Of a DNA stretch of 52,790 nucleotides, positions 32,663 through 51,155 are shown one piece after another (positions within the stretch are counted from its first letter, which is position 1; the number at the start of each line of letters is the position of its first letter). The notes beneath the pieces are model-generated. The model saw nothing but the letters and a program-made list of their open reading frames with translations. It ran no database searches and had not been told where the DNA came from. Made by a program: the position numbers and the translations under genes. Source of the stretch: a virus. The DNA is taken from positions 1-52,790 of the IMG/VR virus record IMGVR_UViG_3300049846_001564, one strand, 5' to 3'.

Positions 32663-33451
32663 TTATATTTTTCTATCATCATATTCTACAATACCTTTAT
32701 TAATCGCATATTGGTGTATTTCATGTCCGCGCTCTAAATTAAAAGCATTCCATTCTTTAGTTGAAATAGAATCCTTAGTACACGTTGTATAACAATTAGG
32801 CGTCTCATATAAAGTTATTTTATGAATACGCAAATTATCATACTGCTTAAATAAGATTTCCATAGCTAAAAATATTTCTTTAGCTATATTCTCCGCAGAT
32901 GGATTACAATATTCTCTGGCGCCATTTAGTGACATCAACCATAATTTACTACCTAATTTTTTGGTTACGTCTATTAATTCAGTGTCCTTCGGATTGAGAA
33001 TCATGCCATGATCTAAAATATCATCTATCCATTGACACCCAACTCTTTTTATTTCTTTAAAGTCAATGGCATACCCAATAGCTTCCATTTCATTGAATTC
33101 AAATTCGAGTTCGTATAAATATGTGTGGCCCTAATTTGTTATCGTAGAAGTTCTTTATCATCTACTTCTTATAGTTTCCTATAAGATCGGACTATATCAT
33201 CAGTATATAACTGTCGGGAGCTCGTGGAAGTTTTATTGTTGGGACTCAACTTCTAGTCTCTGAACCTTTTATGAAACTCATAACCCTTCATAACTTGGCT
33301 GCTGATTGGCATATCTTTCGAATTAGCGTTCCAGCAATTCACCCGATTTATAGTGCACCGCTCAATGCACATTAAAACATTTCATTCTTTCATTCATAAC
33401 ACGATGGCCAGAATCAAAGGATCCTTTCCTCGTTATGTATTGTACTTTCAT
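32663..33451 (-). CDS. queD: 6-carboxytetrahydropterin synthase, interrupted by a group I intron
   Basis: Two exons: 33451-33365 (29 codons) and 33130-32663 (155 codons plus stop), joined to a 184-residue protein. Exon 1 gives FDSGHRVMNERMKCFNVH, with the first zinc His and catalytic Cys. Exon 2 starts GHTYLYELEFEFNEMEAIGY, so splicing rebuilds the zinc-binding HGH. Later YAIDFKEIK, DDILDHGMILN and ITLYETPNCY are QueD hallmarks. Unspliced, exon 1 runs straight into TGA. QueD converts dihydroneopterin triphosphate to carboxytetrahydropterin. Exon 1 overlaps the end of the homing endonuclease gene by 38 bases. Confidence 0.92.
33131..33364 (-). ncRNA. Group I intron in queD
   Basis: 234-nt intron without an ORF. 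P1: exon end GTGCAT pairs with GTGCAC 6 nt into the intron, giving the expected U-G pair at the 5' splice site. The intron ends in G (AAATTAG) before exon GGCCAC. Core elements are present in order: AATTGCTGGAACG (P), AATCAGCAGCC (Q), GTTCAGAGACTAG (R) and GATATAGTCC (S), so P4 and P7 can form. It lies between the codons for H and GH of the conserved HGH motif. Confidence 0.92.
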
Positions 33452-34088
33452 ATTCCATTAATTTAAATTTGTTATTGATTATATGTTTATAATGCGGCAA
33501 AAACTTTTTATTTACAATAAATATAACATTAAAATCAGTGTATTCCAAATACGCATAAATTTTTTTTATATTTCGATCTCTGCCTTTACTAGTAGCAGAT
33601 GCTATACCCGATACTTCTATAATGTTATTGTTGACTATAAAATCTGGTTTATATAATGCATCTAATATTTTTAAAGTAGGTTCCCGTAATACGGTGTGCG
33701 TGCATATCAATTTGTAAATTTCAACTTCATATGAACTCCTAAACCAAATATCTTTGTATTTTATTCCTCTATTTATATTGGACAATACTTTATTAAGGCT
33801 ATTTTCATTTGCCATAGGATTGTCTTTACCTCGTTTAAACCCGCATGCCGGTGTACTTGTACCGTATATTTCTTTATATGTTTTGCCTCGAGTCGAACAT
33901 CCCATTCCAAATCTACGACCCGGGGTTTTTATTATTTTACCACAACCGCATGCACATTCACGTGGTTGTTTGCACTCGGTGCACGTATAACATTTAACAT
34001 CAGCAGCTTTAAAATTTACATTGCAATATTTGCATTTACAATCAAACTTTAATTTTTTAGGAGCGTATTTGCCTCGAATTAAACTCAT
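33414..34088 (-). CDS. Free-standing homing endonuclease, NUMOD3-like and PD-(D/E)XK-like
   Basis: 224 residues. N-terminus has several Cys pairs (CKCKYC, CYTCTECK, CACGCGK), likely zinc fingers. GKTYKEIYGTSTPACGFKRG with KDNPM resembles the NUMOD3 DNA-binding module. The C-terminal part has WFRSSYEVEIYKL and YKPDFIVNNNIIEVSG, the E...PDF...ExxG pattern of PD-(D/E)XK homing enzymes. The gene ends inside queD exon 1, upstream of the intron instead of within it, which suggests collaborative homing of the ORF-less intron. Confidence 0.82.
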   Translation of the reverse strand: MSLIRGKYAPKKLKFDCKCKYCNVNFKAADVKCYTCTECKQPRECACGCGKIIKTPGRRFGMGCSTRGKTYKEIYGTSTPACGFKRGKDNPMANENSLNKVLSNINRGIKYKDIWFRSSYEVEIYKLICTHTVLREPTLKILDALYKPDFIVNNNIIEVSGIASATSKGRDRNIKKIYAYLEYTDFNVIFIVNKKFLPHYKHIINNKFKLMEYESTIHNEERIL

Positions 34089-43389: not shown

Positions 43390-43753
43390 TGGTGGAGGAG
43401 GAGGGATTCGAACCCTCGTTTCCGATACCATTTTAAAGATTTTCTACAAGTTTAGTTATATTTTTCTAAATACACAAACTATCTATTTTTACAGAATAGA
43501 AACTGTTTACCACTCTTATTTATGATCACCTAATGGTCCGTGGTGATGGCTCTATTTTTAGGCTACTTCTAACACTTCAGGCTTGGCTTCCTGAGCAACA
43601 CGTGTAATAAAAGTTGGGATACTCATCATATCCTCAGAGTTATAAATGTTTCCACTTATAGTTACCTATTAATTTTTTAATCGCACACATTAATAGGCAA
43701 TGCGATACTTGCTTGTCAATAAACTAAATATCGGGGCTTTCCATGTCTCCCCC
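43390..43753 (-). ncRNA. ssrA: tmRNA
   Basis: 364 nt with encoded CCA. Ends pair as GGGGGAG/CTCCTCC including a G3-U70 wobble, the alanyl-tRNA synthetase signal. T-arm GAGGGTTCGAATCCCTC. H2 stem CCGATA/TATCGG. PK1: CCTATTAAT pairs with ATTAATAGG while TCGCA pairs with TGCGA in its loop. A tag frame at 43558-43596 reads AQEAKPEVLEVA then TAA and lies in a CTCAGG/CCTGAG hairpin, as in H5. tmRNA frees stalled ribosomes with SmpB; smpB is not seen in the window, so host SmpB is presumably used. Confidence 0.92.
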
Positions 43754-44022: not shown

Positions 44023-44108
44023 TTGAGCTTAACCGGAATTCTGCTTTATCGTAACATTTGACTATTCCCTGACCAGAGTTTCGAAGCCTTGCTCACCGGC
44101 TAACTCAA
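44023..44108 (-). ncRNA. Stem-closed small RNA candidate between tRNAs
   Basis: 86 nt closed by a 13-bp helix with one bulge, TTGAGTTAGCCGG against CCGGTTAAGCTCAA. No T-loop or anticodon arm, so not a tRNA. The rest of the gap up to 44222 has a CTCGG/CCGAG hairpin but no ORF. Confidence 0.5.
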
Positions 44109-44222
44109 TTTAGGTTTCTACCTCGGTAGTGCAAATGATTTTTTAAATCTCCTACCTTAAGCAATGTAGTTCCGAGTTTTCTAATACATTTAAGTACTCG
44201 TTACGTTCTCTTATTAATTTAG

Positions 44223-44295
44223 TACCTCTACCGAGATTCGAACTCGGACAAACAGTTTCTAAGACTGTCCTGACTACCAATTACAGCATAGAGGC
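44223..44295 (-). tRNA. tRNA with Leu anticodon (TAG), short variable loop
   Basis: Acceptor GCCTCTA/TAGAGGT, anticodon stem ACAGT/ACTGT, loop CTTAGAA, T-arm CCGAGTTCGAATCTCGG. Variable loop only about 4 nt, unlike normal class II tRNA-Leu. Overlaps the last bases of the denV-like gene. Confidence 0.82.
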
Positions 44296-44652
44296 ATTTT
44301 TTGTTCTTTCTCTTATACGTTCTCTAATTATTAACTCATCTCTTTTAGTTGGAATATAATTATTCATTAAATGATCCGGTACATTATCCCAACAATTACC
44401 ATAGTAAGTAACATTATAGTTTCTACGTTTGCATTCTTTATAAAGTTCTTCATATCTGTTTTTTAAATATAATAACTTATCATAAAAAAATTTTACATGA
44501 CCTTTACCTAAAGTGAATTCTTTCGGCTGATCTTTTAAGTTGTACCTTCCTTTAACTATACAATTAGGAATCCTTTTTATTTCACGATGCTCGGCTATTA
44601 AATGCCTATTTGATAACTCCACAACCGGAATAGCTACATTTATTCTAGTCAT
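44281..44652 (-). CDS. denV: Pyrimidine dimer DNA glycosylase, DenV-like
   Basis: 123 residues against 138 in T4 endonuclease V. MTRINVAIPVVELSNRHLIA keeps the catalytic Thr2, and AEHREIKRIPNCI the Glu that corresponds to T4 Glu23. TLGKGHVKFFYDKLLYLKNR matches the central helix. The aromatic C-terminal tail of the T4 enzyme (WYKYY), which touches the dimer, is absent; the protein ends RERTKNASML. It cuts DNA at UV dimers. Located inside the tRNA cluster; its stop overlaps a tRNA 5' end. Confidence 0.9.
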   Translation of the reverse strand: MTRINVAIPVVELSNRHLIAEHREIKRIPNCIVKGRYNLKDQPKEFTLGKGHVKFFYDKLLYLKNRYEELYKECKRRNYNVTYYGNCWDNVPDHLMNNYIPTKRDELIIRERIRERTKNASML

Positions 44653-44743: not shown

Positions 44744-44814
44744 ACGGATCATTTACCTAATATGATACTAATGGTGATCAAGTCCATAGGTAGGATTCGA
44801 ACCTACTTTTCCGT
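44744..44814 (-). ncRNA. Permuted tRNA-like gene P3
   Basis: 71 nt between two tRNAs. Order on the minus strand: ACGGA, short spacer, T-arm GTAGG TTCGAAT CCTAC, CTATGG, 9-nt linker, CCATTAG, D-arm TATCA...TGAT with GG in the loop, TCCGT. CTATGG pairs with CCATTAG (one bulge) as acceptor, and ACGGA pairs with TCCGT as anticodon stem. Thus every tRNA helix can form, but the gene starts and ends in the anticodon loop. Flanks are only 4-5 nt from the neighbouring tRNAs. Confidence 0.65.
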
Positions 44815-45836: not shown

Positions 45837-46250
45837 TTACTGATTCTTTTCATAACCAGAAAGATACCCAATAATATTTTGTTTACCAACCGGATTCATA
45901 CTATGAACCAAATAATCAGGTAATTTAAGTTTATGATCTATACAAAAGTCTACTAACCATTTAGCACATTCATATCCTGTCTTTTCTTTAAACCGTGAAT
46001 AGTTTCTATTATATGCATCCGGACCTTCATACATAGTAGGAGCATAATGTTCATCAGCTAAATCATGATCAAATGAAATTAATTCCGGGAAAGCACCATC
46101 CTCATCAAACTTATTAGTTATTTCCTGAATAAACTCATCATACGACCTAACTACTACCCATCGTAAATTATTATACAATGTATTATGAGTATATTTAAAA
46201 GCGTCCATAGGGCTTCTAAAATCATCTAAGAATAAATTATATTTCATCAT
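45837..46250 (-). CDS. Cyclic-phosphate-processing receiver-domain (cREC) protein
   Basis: 137 residues. YNLFLDDFRSPMDAF is the LDDxRxP start, VVVRSYDEFIQEI the VRSxxEA block and LISFDHDLADEH the SFDHDL motif of the cREC family, proposed to act on cyclic phosphates in RNA repair. Its place inside the tRNA cluster supports a tRNA-repair role. Enzyme activity is a family-level prediction. Confidence 0.75.
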   Translation of the reverse strand: MMKYNLFLDDFRSPMDAFKYTHNTLYNNLRWVVVRSYDEFIQEITNKFDEDGAFPELISFDHDLADEHYAPTMYEGPDAYNRNYSRFKEKTGYECAKWLVDFCIDHKLKLPDYLVHSMNPVGKQNIIGYLSGYEKNQ

Positions 46251-47260: not shown

Positions 47261-47271
47261 ATTTAAAATAG

Positions 47272-47349
47272 TACTCTCGGGGGGACTTGAACCCACATTT
47301 TCAACCAATTACCTTTATGCAAGATATAAGCTTGCGGGGATACGAGAGC
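47272..47349 (-). tRNA. tRNA-like with Ile anticodon (TAT), no D-arm
   Basis: 78 nt. Acceptor GCTCTCG/CGAGAGT, then only TATCCCC before the anticodon arm GCAAG CTTATAT CTTGC, then 22 nt containing AAGGTAATTGGTTGA, then T-arm. The D-arm is missing from its place, and a D-loop-like GG sequence appears after the anticodon arm. The same plan is found in 47466-47543. Confidence 0.65.
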
Positions 47350-47462: not shown

Positions 47463-47465
47463 TAG

Positions 47466-47543
47466 TCGGCAAGGAGGGAGTTGAACCCACATTTTCAACC
47501 AATTACCTTACTCCTGTGTATCAGACAGGGCGGATACTTGCCG
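47466..47543 (-). tRNA. tRNA-like with Ile anticodon (GAT), no D-arm
   Basis: 78 nt. Acceptor CGGCAAG/CTTGCCG, TATCCGC, anticodon arm CCTGT CTGATAC ACAGG, then the same 22-nt block as the TAT gene, and T-arm with one mismatch. Shared block GGTAATTGGTTGAAAATG in both. Confidence 0.65.
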
Positions 47544-47770: not shown

Positions 47771-47776
47771 TTATTT

Positions 47777-47867
47777 CCTCGTGCTACCATTACACTATAT
47801 CTCAAATACAACGACGTTGTCGTCGACATTCTCATAGATATCGGAATCGAACCGCTCTTAGGGTAGA
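47777..47867 (-). other. tRNA fragments in reversed order
   Basis: A T-arm-like piece (GCGGTTCGATTCCG) is followed by a TCGACGACAACGTCGT hairpin and then a 5' tRNA piece (AGATAT, D-arm GTGTAATGGTAGCAC). AGATAT can pair with ATATCT of the first piece. No matching anticodon stem was found, so this is weaker than P1-P3. Confidence 0.35.
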
Positions 47868-49429: not shown

Positions 49430-49441
49430 ATTATGTTGCCC

Positions 49442-49520
49442 TAAACTCTCTTAGGCTTTTATACCTATTGTAGGCGCGGCATTCGGCGCCTCGTTATTCG
49501 GAATTTCTTCCTACAGTTTA
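49442..49520 (-). ncRNA. Structured 79-nt element, copy 1
   Basis: Closed by TAAACT/AGTTTA. Inner pairs AGGCG/CGCCT and TAGG/CCTA. About 80% identical by eye to copy 2 (49602-49679). Lies just after permuted tRNA P2. Confidence 0.6.
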
Positions 49521-49524
49521 TACG

Positions 49525-49590
49525 AAGGGCGTCCTACCTTTGAACGATCTGGCCGAAGCCAGAGTAGGACTCGAACCTACATTTCCCCTT
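49525..49590 (-). ncRNA. Permuted tRNA-like gene P2
   Basis: 66 nt. Order on the minus strand: AAGGG, GAAAT, T-arm GTAGG TTCGAGT CCTAC, TCTGGC, TTCG, GCCAGA, TC, D-arm GTTC AAAGGTA GGAC, G, CCCTT. The acceptor is a hairpin capped by a C(TTCG)G tetraloop; AAGGG and CCCTT make a perfect 5-bp anticodon stem; variable loop GAAAT has normal size. All parts of a tRNA are present but opened in the anticodon loop. Confidence 0.72.
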
Positions 49591-49601
49591 GATCTTGCCG
49601 G

Positions 49602-49679
49602 TAAACTCTCTTGAGATTTTACACCCATTGTAGGCGTAGCATGAACGCCTCGTTGTTCAGAATTTCTTCCTACAGTTTA
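49602..49679 (-). ncRNA. Structured 79-nt element, copy 2
   Basis: Same plan as copy 1. The TAGG/CCTA helix of copy 1 appears here as TGGG/CTCA: one A-U pair changed to G-C on both sides and one G-C to G-U, so pairing is kept. Lies just after permuted tRNA P1. Confidence 0.6.
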
Positions 49680-49684
49680 CCTCG

Positions 49685-49754
49685 ACCGGCGTTTTTCTAT
49701 TAAACTACCTGGACGCTAAGCGTCCTGGGTGGGATTCGAACCCACATCTCCGGT
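49685..49754 (-). ncRNA. Permuted tRNA-like gene P1
   Basis: 70 nt. Order: ACCGG, AGAT, T-arm GTGGG TTCGAAT CCCAC, CCAGGACG, CTTAG, CGTCCAGG, TA, D-arm GTTT AATAGAA AAAC, G, CCGGT. The acceptor pairs over 7 of 8 positions (one A-A) with a 5-nt loop; ACCGG/CCGGT is a perfect anticodon stem. Starts 4 nt after the Phe tRNA. Confidence 0.7.
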
Positions 49755-50075: not shown

Positions 50076-50119
50076 ATGATTTTTAAAAAACCACCAAAAT
50101 AATTTTATTTTTTTTTTCT

Positions 50120-50166
50120 GAACTTATTTTGGAATCGAACCAAATTACCTAACCATTAGATAAGTT
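50120..50166 (-). ncRNA. 47-nt tRNA-like structure without anticodon arm
   Basis: Acceptor AACTTAT/ATAAGTT (perfect 7 bp), D-arm-like CTAATGGTTAG, then GTAA, then T-arm TTTGG TTCGATT CCAAA and base C. The anticodon arm is absent. It lies at the downstream end of the large ncRNA candidate and could be a 3' processing signal cut by RNase P and Z. Confidence 0.65.
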
Positions 50167-51155
50167 AAAATAAAACGCTGAGATTATACGTTTATACGTC
50201 ACGACTTTCAAAGGATTATCTTGTTCCCTTTTTATCCAGAAGCTTTTGACTTCTACCTTGACAATGCCGATTGGTTAGACCAATCACTCCTTGAGTTGCT
50301 ATTTATCGGTTACTCTCTACATACTAACTCTTACTTAACCCTGCCGAGCTAATTAATCCTTGCGAGACTATAAGGCTTTCTACAAAATCAATATCAGCTT
50401 GCGACTAATATTGGCATCCGACAACCGGATACTAGGTAGGCATCTTTCACCTGCAACTGACAAGCACTTTTGCTTTTATGTTTCCAATGAGATTTTCATT
50501 AACAGTGAAATTCATAGTAGCGACTTGTGGATGGATGAAAGTAGTGGCTCGTCATTCCAGCTTTCCCAACTTTTGGAAGGGAAAATACTAAACTACTCTC
50601 TAAGATGTCCCCATCTTCATATTTTAAGATTCTTTCATAAAATGAACTTGGTGAGTTCATAATAAGGAAAACAGCAACACCACTTGGTTATTTTCTTGCT
50701 TTTCAGCTTTAAAGCTCCTCTAATATTGAAACACGCAATAGTACATTTAGATAAATGTATTTCTTACAATACTTCTATGAATTATTCTTATTGGAGTTCC
50801 CCCCTCAACCCAACAACCCACATTGCCGAGTCACCAAATCCGTTCCGTCTCAGTGTTACCCAAACGTACTTGGATCCAATGATATTCCACTTGCCTACTC
50901 GAGTCCAAATATTTCTATTTGGGCCGCAAACTACTTCAGTCAAAGTAATTCACTTTATACCACTTTCATGGTTTATTTAACGACTATAGGCCGCCAATAT
51001 CTTTTCATTAATCCAAATTCCGGACTAATTGGATACAAATGTATCAAAGAACTAAAGTAATTAAATATAGATTAAATTTTTGAATCTAACAAGATATTTT
51101 TTACTTTTTTTAATAACTATTTCAAAATCAATTACTTAATTTTTAAACGTCATAC
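50167..51155 (-). ncRNA. Large structured non-coding RNA candidate (about 1 kb)
   Basis: No credible minus-strand ORF over nearly 1 kb, yet many perfect hairpins: 50238-50254 (AGAAG/CTTCT), 50269-50285 (GATTGG/CCAATC), 50416-50430, 50463-50476, 50742-50759 (TACATTT/AAATGTA... 7 bp), 50905-50922 (CCAAAT/ATTTGG) and 51032-51045. A promoter-like motif lies at its upstream end (51156-51168) and a tRNA-like structure at its downstream end. Position beside tRNAs and size recall the GOLLD and ROOL phage RNAs; I cannot confirm membership by eye. Confidence 0.6.

What the first reader, a model, noticed from the sequence alone, without database searches (positions are those of the whole stretch)
49525..49590. 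Circularly permuted tRNA-like gene capped by a TTCG tetraloop (P2)
Read on the minus strand, the 3' half (anticodon-stem strand AAGGG, 5-nt variable loop, T-arm, acceptor strand TCTGGC) comes before the 5' half (GCCAGA, D-arm GTTC/GGAC, CCCTT). Both helices that join the halves are perfect: TCTGGC/GCCAGA across TTCG, and AAGGG/CCCTT. Permuted tRNA genes are known from red algae, other algae and some archaea, but there the linker is removed by RNase P and Z. Here the linker is only a tetraloop, so the RNA may stay closed and serve as a non-aminoacylated tRNA mimic.
Basis: partly seen in the sequence, partly recalled or inferred. Interest (0 to 1): 0.88.

Follow-up and report, generated by a model that had tools for sequence, protein, structure and literature searches.

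The report
Phage Y-RNA-type capped tRNA mimic
A virus of bacteria carries, among its real tRNA genes, a small RNA folded like a tRNA with its parts in swapped order and its working end sealed by a loop; it matches the tRNA-imitating part of bacterial "Y RNAs", so it is most likely a tRNA look-alike rather than a scrambled tRNA gene, and it seems to lack the usual handle for the Ro60 protein.

Summary
In detail: at 49525-49590 (-) a T-arm, a 6-bp acceptor hairpin capped by C(UUCG)G, a D-arm and an anticodon stem lie in the order 3'half-loop-5'half. No normal tRNA overlaps it. It has a tandem partner, P1 (49685-49754), and a weaker third copy, P3 (44744-44814).

The architecture is that of the tRNA-mimic module of bacterial Y RNAs (Rfam YrlA). 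Rfam matches P2 weakly (30.8 bits, below gathering). A model I trained only on modules from Ro60/TROVE-encoding phages ranks P1, P2 and P3 first, second and third in the window. At least ten TROVE-encoding phages carry the same module, most of them next to the TROVE gene.

What differs: P1/P2 lack the Ro60-binding stem (TTACTTC...GTTCCC) of other phage Y RNAs, and no Ro60-type gene lies in this 52.8-kb fragment. Each is followed by an ~80-nt repeated cloverleaf-like element (A, B) whose 3' end can pair with the module's anticodon-stem strand. I call it a new variant of a known kind. Function is inferred: a tRNA-shaped adaptor or decoy.

The parts
49525..49590 (-). P2, the reported unit: tRNA-mimic module in YrlA order (AC3' strand, T-arm, capped acceptor hairpin, D-arm, AC5' strand)
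   Evidence: sequence; Rfam YrlA 30.8 bits over 49497-49609; model R1 38.9 bits, E 7e-11
49548..49563 (-). acceptor-like hairpin TCTGGC-TTCG-GCCAGA with C(UUCG)G cap; no CCA, no free acceptor end
   Evidence: sequence
49564..49580 (-). T-arm GTAGG-TTCGAGT-CCTAC
   Evidence: sequence; R1 alignment
49531..49545 (-). D-arm GTTC-AAAGGTA-GGAC, loop keeps the GG that docks with the T-loop in tRNA
   Evidence: sequence; R1 alignment
49685..49754 (-). P1, second module in tandem, starts 4 nt after the discriminator A of tRNA-Phe (49759)
   Evidence: model R1 50.8 bits, E 6e-15, best hit of the window; YrlA 22.3 bits; fold z -2.9
49597..49680 (-). element A: cloverleaf-like repeat between P1 and P2; GTAAACT/AGTTTAC stem plus three hairpins; terminal CGGC (49600-49597) complements GCCG of P1's 5' half
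   Evidence: direct repeat, two-sequence consensus fold with 3 pairs changed on both sides, pair lists
49438..49520 (-). element B: second copy, between P2 and tRNA-Asn; terminal GGGC (49441-49438) complements GCCC of P2's 5' half
   Evidence: fold of B with the end of P2: z -2.6
44744..44814 (-). P3, probable third module filling the gap between tRNA-Leu(taa) and tRNA-Leu(caa); long D-loop, acceptor helix imperfect
   Evidence: R1 31.3 bits, E 3e-8, third hit of the window; neither half in a normal tRNA

Best explanation
P2 (with P1) is the tRNA-mimic ('effector') module of a phage-encoded Y RNA-like (YrlA-type) noncoding RNA, not a tRNA gene. Shown by sequence: it can fold into a tRNA-shaped body (T-arm, D-arm with GG, acceptor helix, anticodon stem) whose acceptor end is sealed by a UUCG tetraloop and whose open side is the anticodon stem. 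Inferred: it is transcribed with the tRNA array, freed by maturation of the flanking tRNAs (P1 begins just past the 3' end of tRNA-Phe), cannot be charged or decode, and works by being mistaken for a tRNA. It would either tether a tRNA-recognising RNA enzyme, as the Y RNA module does with PNPase in Deinococcus, or occupy tRNA-handling or tRNA-cutting proteins of the host during infection. The usual Ro60-binding stem is missing and elements A and B stand in its place, so here the module probably acts without a canonical Ro60 stem.
For: Rfam YrlA covers P2 end to end (30.8 bits, E 8.5e-5 in the 501-nt search) and P1 (22.3 bits). These scores lie in the range of units in Ro60-encoding phages (G005 29.8, G002 32.6; INPHARED phages about 25-50). 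TROVE phages carry the same module: CcrColossus, Rhizobium Y65, phage G, Quantum, BRock, Papperlapapp, Olaya and Neville near the gene, plus G002 and G005. A model built from six such modules (covariation 0.92 against 0.32 shuffled), none from the window, ranks P1, P2, P3 1st-3rd in the window, above every tandem-tRNA junction there. The Y RNA module is a recognised tRNA mimic modified by DusA and TruB and bound by PNPase (PMC8394870). Helices of P1 and P2 are kept despite sequence change. A cREC (cyclic-phosphate-processing, RNA-repair type) protein is encoded inside the same array.
Against: The Rfam score is far below gathering (69). The Ro60-stem signature TTACTTC / GTTCCC is absent from the whole array strand, and the YrlA outer stem pairs poorly. 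No TROVE, DUF2828 or DUF7788 protein in the window record, though it is a fragment. In the wider survey, junctions of ordinary tandem tRNAs score up to 58 bits with R1, so the score alone does not prove the case. No expression data. Function is by analogy.
Confidence: 0.66

Rival explanations
1. A true circularly permuted tRNA gene: the ends are joined at the anticodon loop by an RNA ligase and the acceptor is opened by RNase P and RNase Z to give a working tRNA.
For: Half order and all four helices fit. Units in some other phages carry CCA in the linker (L107 tCCAaatcat, L007 tCCAcagtgg, L060 gCCAaag), and three of nine module-bearing records tested without TROVE encode the ligase RtcB. The LR756501 unit would give a 7-nt loop CUAUAAA if trimmed to its tRNA neighbours.
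Against: P1 and P2 have G at position 33 and no anticodon; the acceptor of P2 is 6 bp under a UUCG cap with no CCA; no RtcB in the fragment. Known permuted tRNAs use BHB motifs and splicing endonuclease, reported only from algae and one archaeon (PMC3978253).
Confidence: 0.1
2. A canonical Ro60-binding Y RNA whose stem is formed by the end of element A (AGTTTA) and the start of element B (TAAACT) around P2, with the Ro60-type protein encoded elsewhere in the phage or host.
For: The two 6-nt strands flank P2 and are complementary, and YrlA aligns over 49497-49609 including them. Many module-bearing phages encode TROVE or DUF2828 proteins.
Against: P1 has no such 5' strand because tRNA-Phe abuts it; TTACTTC and GTTCCC are absent; A and B each close their own stem with compensatory changes; the internal loop would be 11 by 4 nt.
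Confidence: 0.15
3. A non-functional leftover of recombination between tandem tRNA genes (loss of the outer halves of a duplicated tRNA).
For: It sits in a tRNA array; such loss is the proposed origin of permuted RNAs (PMC3978253); junctions between tandem tRNAs resemble it by chance.
Against: P1 and P2 keep every helix although their sequences differ in most stems; acceptor halves of unrelated tRNAs would not pair 6/6 under a tetraloop; the same architecture recurs in many unrelated phages next to Ro60 genes.
Confidence: 0.09

Closest known systems
YrlA / bacterial Y RNA (Rfam RF02553)
   Same: Order of parts (AC strand, T-arm, 6-bp acceptor-like hairpin with 3-5-nt loop, D-arm, AC strand); tRNA-mimic module closed at the acceptor end
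   Different: Ro60-binding stem with its conserved sequence not found; score below gathering; tandem copies separated by repeated cloverleaf-like elements; no Ro60-type gene in the fragment
Phage Y RNAs next to Ro60/TROVE genes (found here: CcrColossus, Rhizobium Y65, Bacillus phage G, Quantum, BRock and others; Y RNAs of mycobacteriophages are reported by Chen et al. 2014 as cited in PMC12282133)
   Same: Same module; they lie among tRNA genes; a model trained on them finds P1 and P2
   Different: They carry ..TTACTTC.. upstream and ..GTTCCC.. downstream; P1 and P2 do not
Circularly permuted tRNA genes of red and green algae and Thermofilum (PMC3978253)
   Same: 3' half precedes 5' half; acceptor strands linked by a loop
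   Different: Those have an anticodon, a BHB junction and a removable linker; none of these is seen here
Permuted (two-piece) tmRNA (RF04321)
   Same: tRNA-like domain encoded in swapped order
   Different: No tag-peptide module; D-arm intact; the window has its own one-piece tmRNA at 43390-43753

Membership tests
YrlA / bacterial Y RNA | tRNA-like module: T-arm, capped acceptor-like hairpin, D-arm, closing stem, in that order | tested here: met
YrlA / bacterial Y RNA | Rfam gathering score (69 bits) | tested here: not met
   30.8 bits; modules in TROVE phages score at most 50, so the cut-off is also missed by them
YrlA / bacterial Y RNA | Ro60-binding stem made by the 5' and 3' ends, with the conserved sequence seen in phage Y RNAs | tested here: not met
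   TACTTC, TTCTTC and GTTCCC absent from the array strand; outer stem of the YrlA alignment mostly mispaired; only a 6-bp AGTTTA/TAAACT flank for P2, none for P1
YrlA / bacterial Y RNA | linked gene for Ro60/Rsr (TROVE) or a divergent relative | tested here: inconclusive
   no PF05731, PF11443 or PF25043 in the 52.8-kb record, which is a fragment; none by PF05731 in contigs of distant relatives
YrlA / bacterial Y RNA | binds Rsr and PNPase, is a stable RNA | not testable with these tools
   needs RNA and protein work
Circularly permuted tRNA gene | 3' half before 5' half with all cloverleaf helices | tested here: met
Circularly permuted tRNA gene | functional anticodon loop (U33, anticodon) restored on joining | tested here: not met
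   loop flanks GATC|AAGGG and CCCTT|CGTA (P2), CGAA|ACCGG and CCGGT|CGAG (P1): position 33 is G
Circularly permuted tRNA gene | linker that can be removed to free a 7-bp acceptor with CCA | tested here: inconclusive
   no CCA encoded, 6 bp plus UUCG (or 7 bp plus 2 nt); other tRNAs of this array also mostly lack encoded CCA, and 1-nt linkers exist in Thermofilum (PMC3978253)
Circularly permuted tRNA gene | BHB splice motif at the junction | tested here: not met
   no 3-nt bulge, 4-bp helix, 3-nt bulge around the ends, by inspection; no BHB search program was run

The most novel reading that the evidence does not exclude
A Ro60-independent class of phage tRNA mimics with a built-in switch. The anticodon-stem strand of each module (GCCG in P1, GCCC in P2) can pair either with its own upstream strand, closing the mimic, or with the 3' end of the element that follows (CGGC, GGGC), opening it. 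Between the two units the nucleotide of the module and both of its alternative partners change together (G with C and C, to C with G and G), as a maintained two-state RNA would.
Probability: 0.15. Interest if true: 0.78.

Novelty: new variant of a known kind. Interest (0 to 1): 0.55.

Why it matters
It links 'permuted tRNA' sightings in phage genomes to the Y RNA / Ro60 system, whose role in bacteria and phages is still open. It supplies a simple signature (capped acceptor hairpin between T-arm and D-arm, with or without TTACTTC..GTTCCC) for finding phage Y RNAs that tRNA finders miss or break up, and points to units without the Ro60 stem as tests of what the tRNA-mimic part does alone. A suggestion already in print, that the YrlA tRNA-like domain could competitively inhibit an anticodon nuclease (PMC7790460), becomes directly testable with these phage RNAs.

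Tried and rejected
BLAST of the 331-nt region against 50,697 phage records: only short tRNA-arm matches, but one led to the LR756501 unit. Seeds from elements A/B (25 and 17 nt) in viral contigs and 18 nt in genome contigs: none or only matches that look unrelated and mostly coding, so no homologue of A/B was found and their structure rests on two copies. DnaB relatives of the window's phage lack the array and the module in the stretches held. Known self-cleaving ribozymes, group I intron or other Rfam families for A/B: nothing significant. Ligase RtcB in the window record: absent. Listeria P100 as a phage with transcriptome data for a close relative (PMC12282133): its Ro-like gp165 matches DUF2828/DUF7788, but R1 hits fall mainly in its tRNA gene region and no module was recognised near gp165. 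Paper searches for permuted tRNA in phages and for YrlA as a permuted tRNA found no report; Chen 2014, Wang 2018 and Sim and Wolin 2018 are not held and are known here only through citing papers. A script for base-pair probabilities of the whole region crashed; the MFE of the whole region disrupts the P1 module and pairs across units, so folding energy does not settle which alternative dominates. R1 scores alone do not separate modules from tandem tRNA junctions in tRNA-dense DNA; overlap with complete tRNAs had to be used.

Full report
1. Observation. On the minus strand 49590-49525 the parts run AAGGG, GAAAT, T-arm GTAGG-TTCGAGT-CCTAC, TCTGGC-TTCG-GCCAGA, TC, D-arm GTTC-AAAGGTA-GGAC, G, CCCTT. 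All four helices are complete. No tRNA is called there, although the surrounding 6.5 kb hold 26 ARAGORN tRNA genes and a tmRNA. Shuffled DNA (1.1 Mb) never reached its score. Junctions of ordinary tandem tRNAs can come close, but there both halves belong to complete tRNAs, which is not so here.

2. Anatomy around it. P2 is the second of two modules. P1 (49754-49685) begins four bases after the discriminator base of tRNA-Phe. After P1 and again after P2 stands an ~80-nt repeat (elements A and B, about 85% alike). Both can fold as a closed stem TAAACT/AGTTTA with three hairpins, the first capped by GAAA; three pairs change on both sides between the two copies and two change on one side. The last four bases of each element (CGGC, GGGC) are complementary to the first bases of the preceding module's anticodon-stem strand (GCCG, GCCC), so that strand has two possible partners. 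A third, weaker module (P3, 44814-44744) fills the gap between two tRNA-Leu genes.

3. What it is. A permissive Rfam search gave the lead: the only sub-threshold family that covers P2 and P1 sensibly is YrlA, the bacterial Y RNA (30.8 and 22.3 bits). Its consensus is the same arrangement: T-arm, 6-bp hairpin with a 3-nt loop, UA, D-arm, closing stem. Reviews describe this module as a tRNA mimic that is modified by DusA and TruB and bound by PNPase, with a separate stem held by the Ro60 protein Rsr (PMC8394870).

4. Independent test in phages. 93 phage records encode a Ro60/TROVE protein. In eight of the fourteen neighbourhoods fetched from them the same module lies near the gene: CcrColossus, Rhizobium Y65, Bacillus phage G, Streptomyces Quantum and BRock, Brevundimonas Papperlapapp, and Xanthomonas Olaya and Gordonia Neville. 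Two IMG/VR records with the module also encode TROVE: G005, where it lies within 1 kb of the gene, and G002. Most of these units share a stem signature: GTAG, 7-9 nt, TTACTTC on the 5' side and GTTCCC on the 3' side. A covariance model from six of them (17 of 21 pairs with changes on both sides) was then run on the window, which had contributed nothing to it. P1 (50.8 bits), P2 (38.9) and P3 (31.3) are its three best hits.

5. What differs. The window's units lack TTACTTC and GTTCCC, and the outer YrlA stem pairs poorly. The 52.8-kb record has no TROVE, DUF2828, DUF7788 or RtcB gene, but it is a fragment. Among 16 records with orphan modules, found by scanning tRNA-array contigs and LR756501, those with the TTACTTC motif usually encode TROVE (4 of 5: L012, L117, L103, L037; not L095), those without it rarely (1 of 11, L049); Fisher p is about 0.01 by hand, on a small set in which one record (L012) also trained the model. 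TROVE is also found in 4 of 20 comparable tRNA-array records without a detected module in the stretch held. Three motif-less records (LR756501, L060, L096) encode a DUF2828/DUF7788 protein, the kind found in Listeria P100 gp165; a protein of the P100-like phage CKA15 at a similar place was likened to Rsr by its authors (PMC12282133). So a motif-less module does not always mean a phage without a Ro-like protein.

6. Not a tRNA gene. Permuted tRNA genes of algae and archaea rebuild an anticodon loop through a BHB junction and free the acceptor for CCA (PMC3978253). P1 and P2 have G at position 33, no anticodon, no CCA and no BHB; P2's acceptor is sealed by the extra-stable C(UUCG)G cap. Some modules elsewhere do carry CCA in the linker and some phages with modules encode RtcB, so real permuted tRNAs in other phages are not excluded.

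7. Mechanism, with what is shown and what is inferred. Shown by sequence: a tRNA-shaped fold with closed acceptor, kept in two diverged copies. Inferred: transcription with the array, release by maturation of neighbouring tRNAs, and action as a tRNA look-alike. Two roles fit: a tether for a tRNA-binding RNA enzyme, as with PNPase in Deinococcus (PMC7790460, PMC8394870), or a decoy for tRNA-handling or tRNA-cutting proteins, as suggested for the YrlA domain (PMC7790460). The cREC gene in the array is compatible with an RNA-damage setting but proves nothing. That Y RNAs occur in mycobacteriophages is already reported (Chen 2014, cited in PMC12282133), so the module itself is not new. The variant lies in the missing Ro60 stem, the tandem copies and elements A and B.

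8. Verdict. Observation confirmed; interpretation partly right (mimic, closed) and partly replaced (Y RNA module rather than permuted tRNA gene). New variant of a known kind; interest 0.55. The two-state reading (section 2) is the most novel possibility left open; it rests on one triple change between two copies, and folding energies do not decide it.

Noticed in passing
window 44025-44210 (-): Sub-threshold match to archaeal RNase P RNA (RF00373, 28.3 bits, E 1.7e-6 in the 401-nt search), with AGAAAACUC, GUAGAAACCUAAAU, UAGUCAAAUG and GCAGAAUUCCGGUUA in order: possible phage-encoded RNase P RNA inside the tRNA array.
   Followed up: partly
window 50118-50164 (-), next to GOLLD RNA 50175-50600: tRNA-like AACTTAT..ATAAGTT with a short D-arm-like hairpin and T-arm but no anticodon arm, directly after GOLLD RNA.
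   Followed up: no
window 47269-47345 and 47463-47543 (-): Two tRNA-like units with good acceptor and T-arm in which a D-arm-like GGTAATTGGTTGAAA lies after the anticodon hairpin instead of before it; the second reaches only 31.8 bits as tRNA.
   Followed up: no
window 47775-47864 (-): Possible fourth swapped-order unit with a long (about 33-nt) linker; weak (R1 14.3 bits).
   Followed up: partly
window 45837-46250 and 44281-44652 (-): Genes inside the tRNA array: a cREC (cyclic-phosphate processing receiver) protein and a pyrimidine-dimer glycosylase family protein.
   Followed up: no
window 33168-33421 (-): Group I intron (RF00028, 91.6 bits), directly beside ORF 33414-34088.
   Followed up: no
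L012 5441-5560 and 5900-6000 (+): Ro60-type stems (TTACTTC...TTTCCG) that appear to enclose complete, normal-order tRNA-Val(tac) and tRNA-Thr(tgt) sequences: Y RNA stem carrying what looks like a real tRNA.
   Followed up: no
L211 4484-4600 and L216 4845-4960 (+): Phage Y RNAs next to TROVE genes that keep an anticodon hairpin with loop CTGTTAA (Asn GUU) before the T-arm, capped acceptor hairpin and D-arm.
   Followed up: no
LR756501 340834-343182 (-): Huge-phage DUF2828/DUF7788 (Ro-like) gene beside an RtcB ligase gene, an arrangement like bacterial rsr-rtcB operons; a capped module lies about 22 kb away.
   Followed up: partly
L049 8200-8950 (-): Several swapped-order modules separated by repeats ending GAGCCGGA..GGTTATC, in a phage with TROVE nearby and no tRNA found by ARAGORN in the stretch held: a different Ro-stem type may exist.
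   Followed up: no
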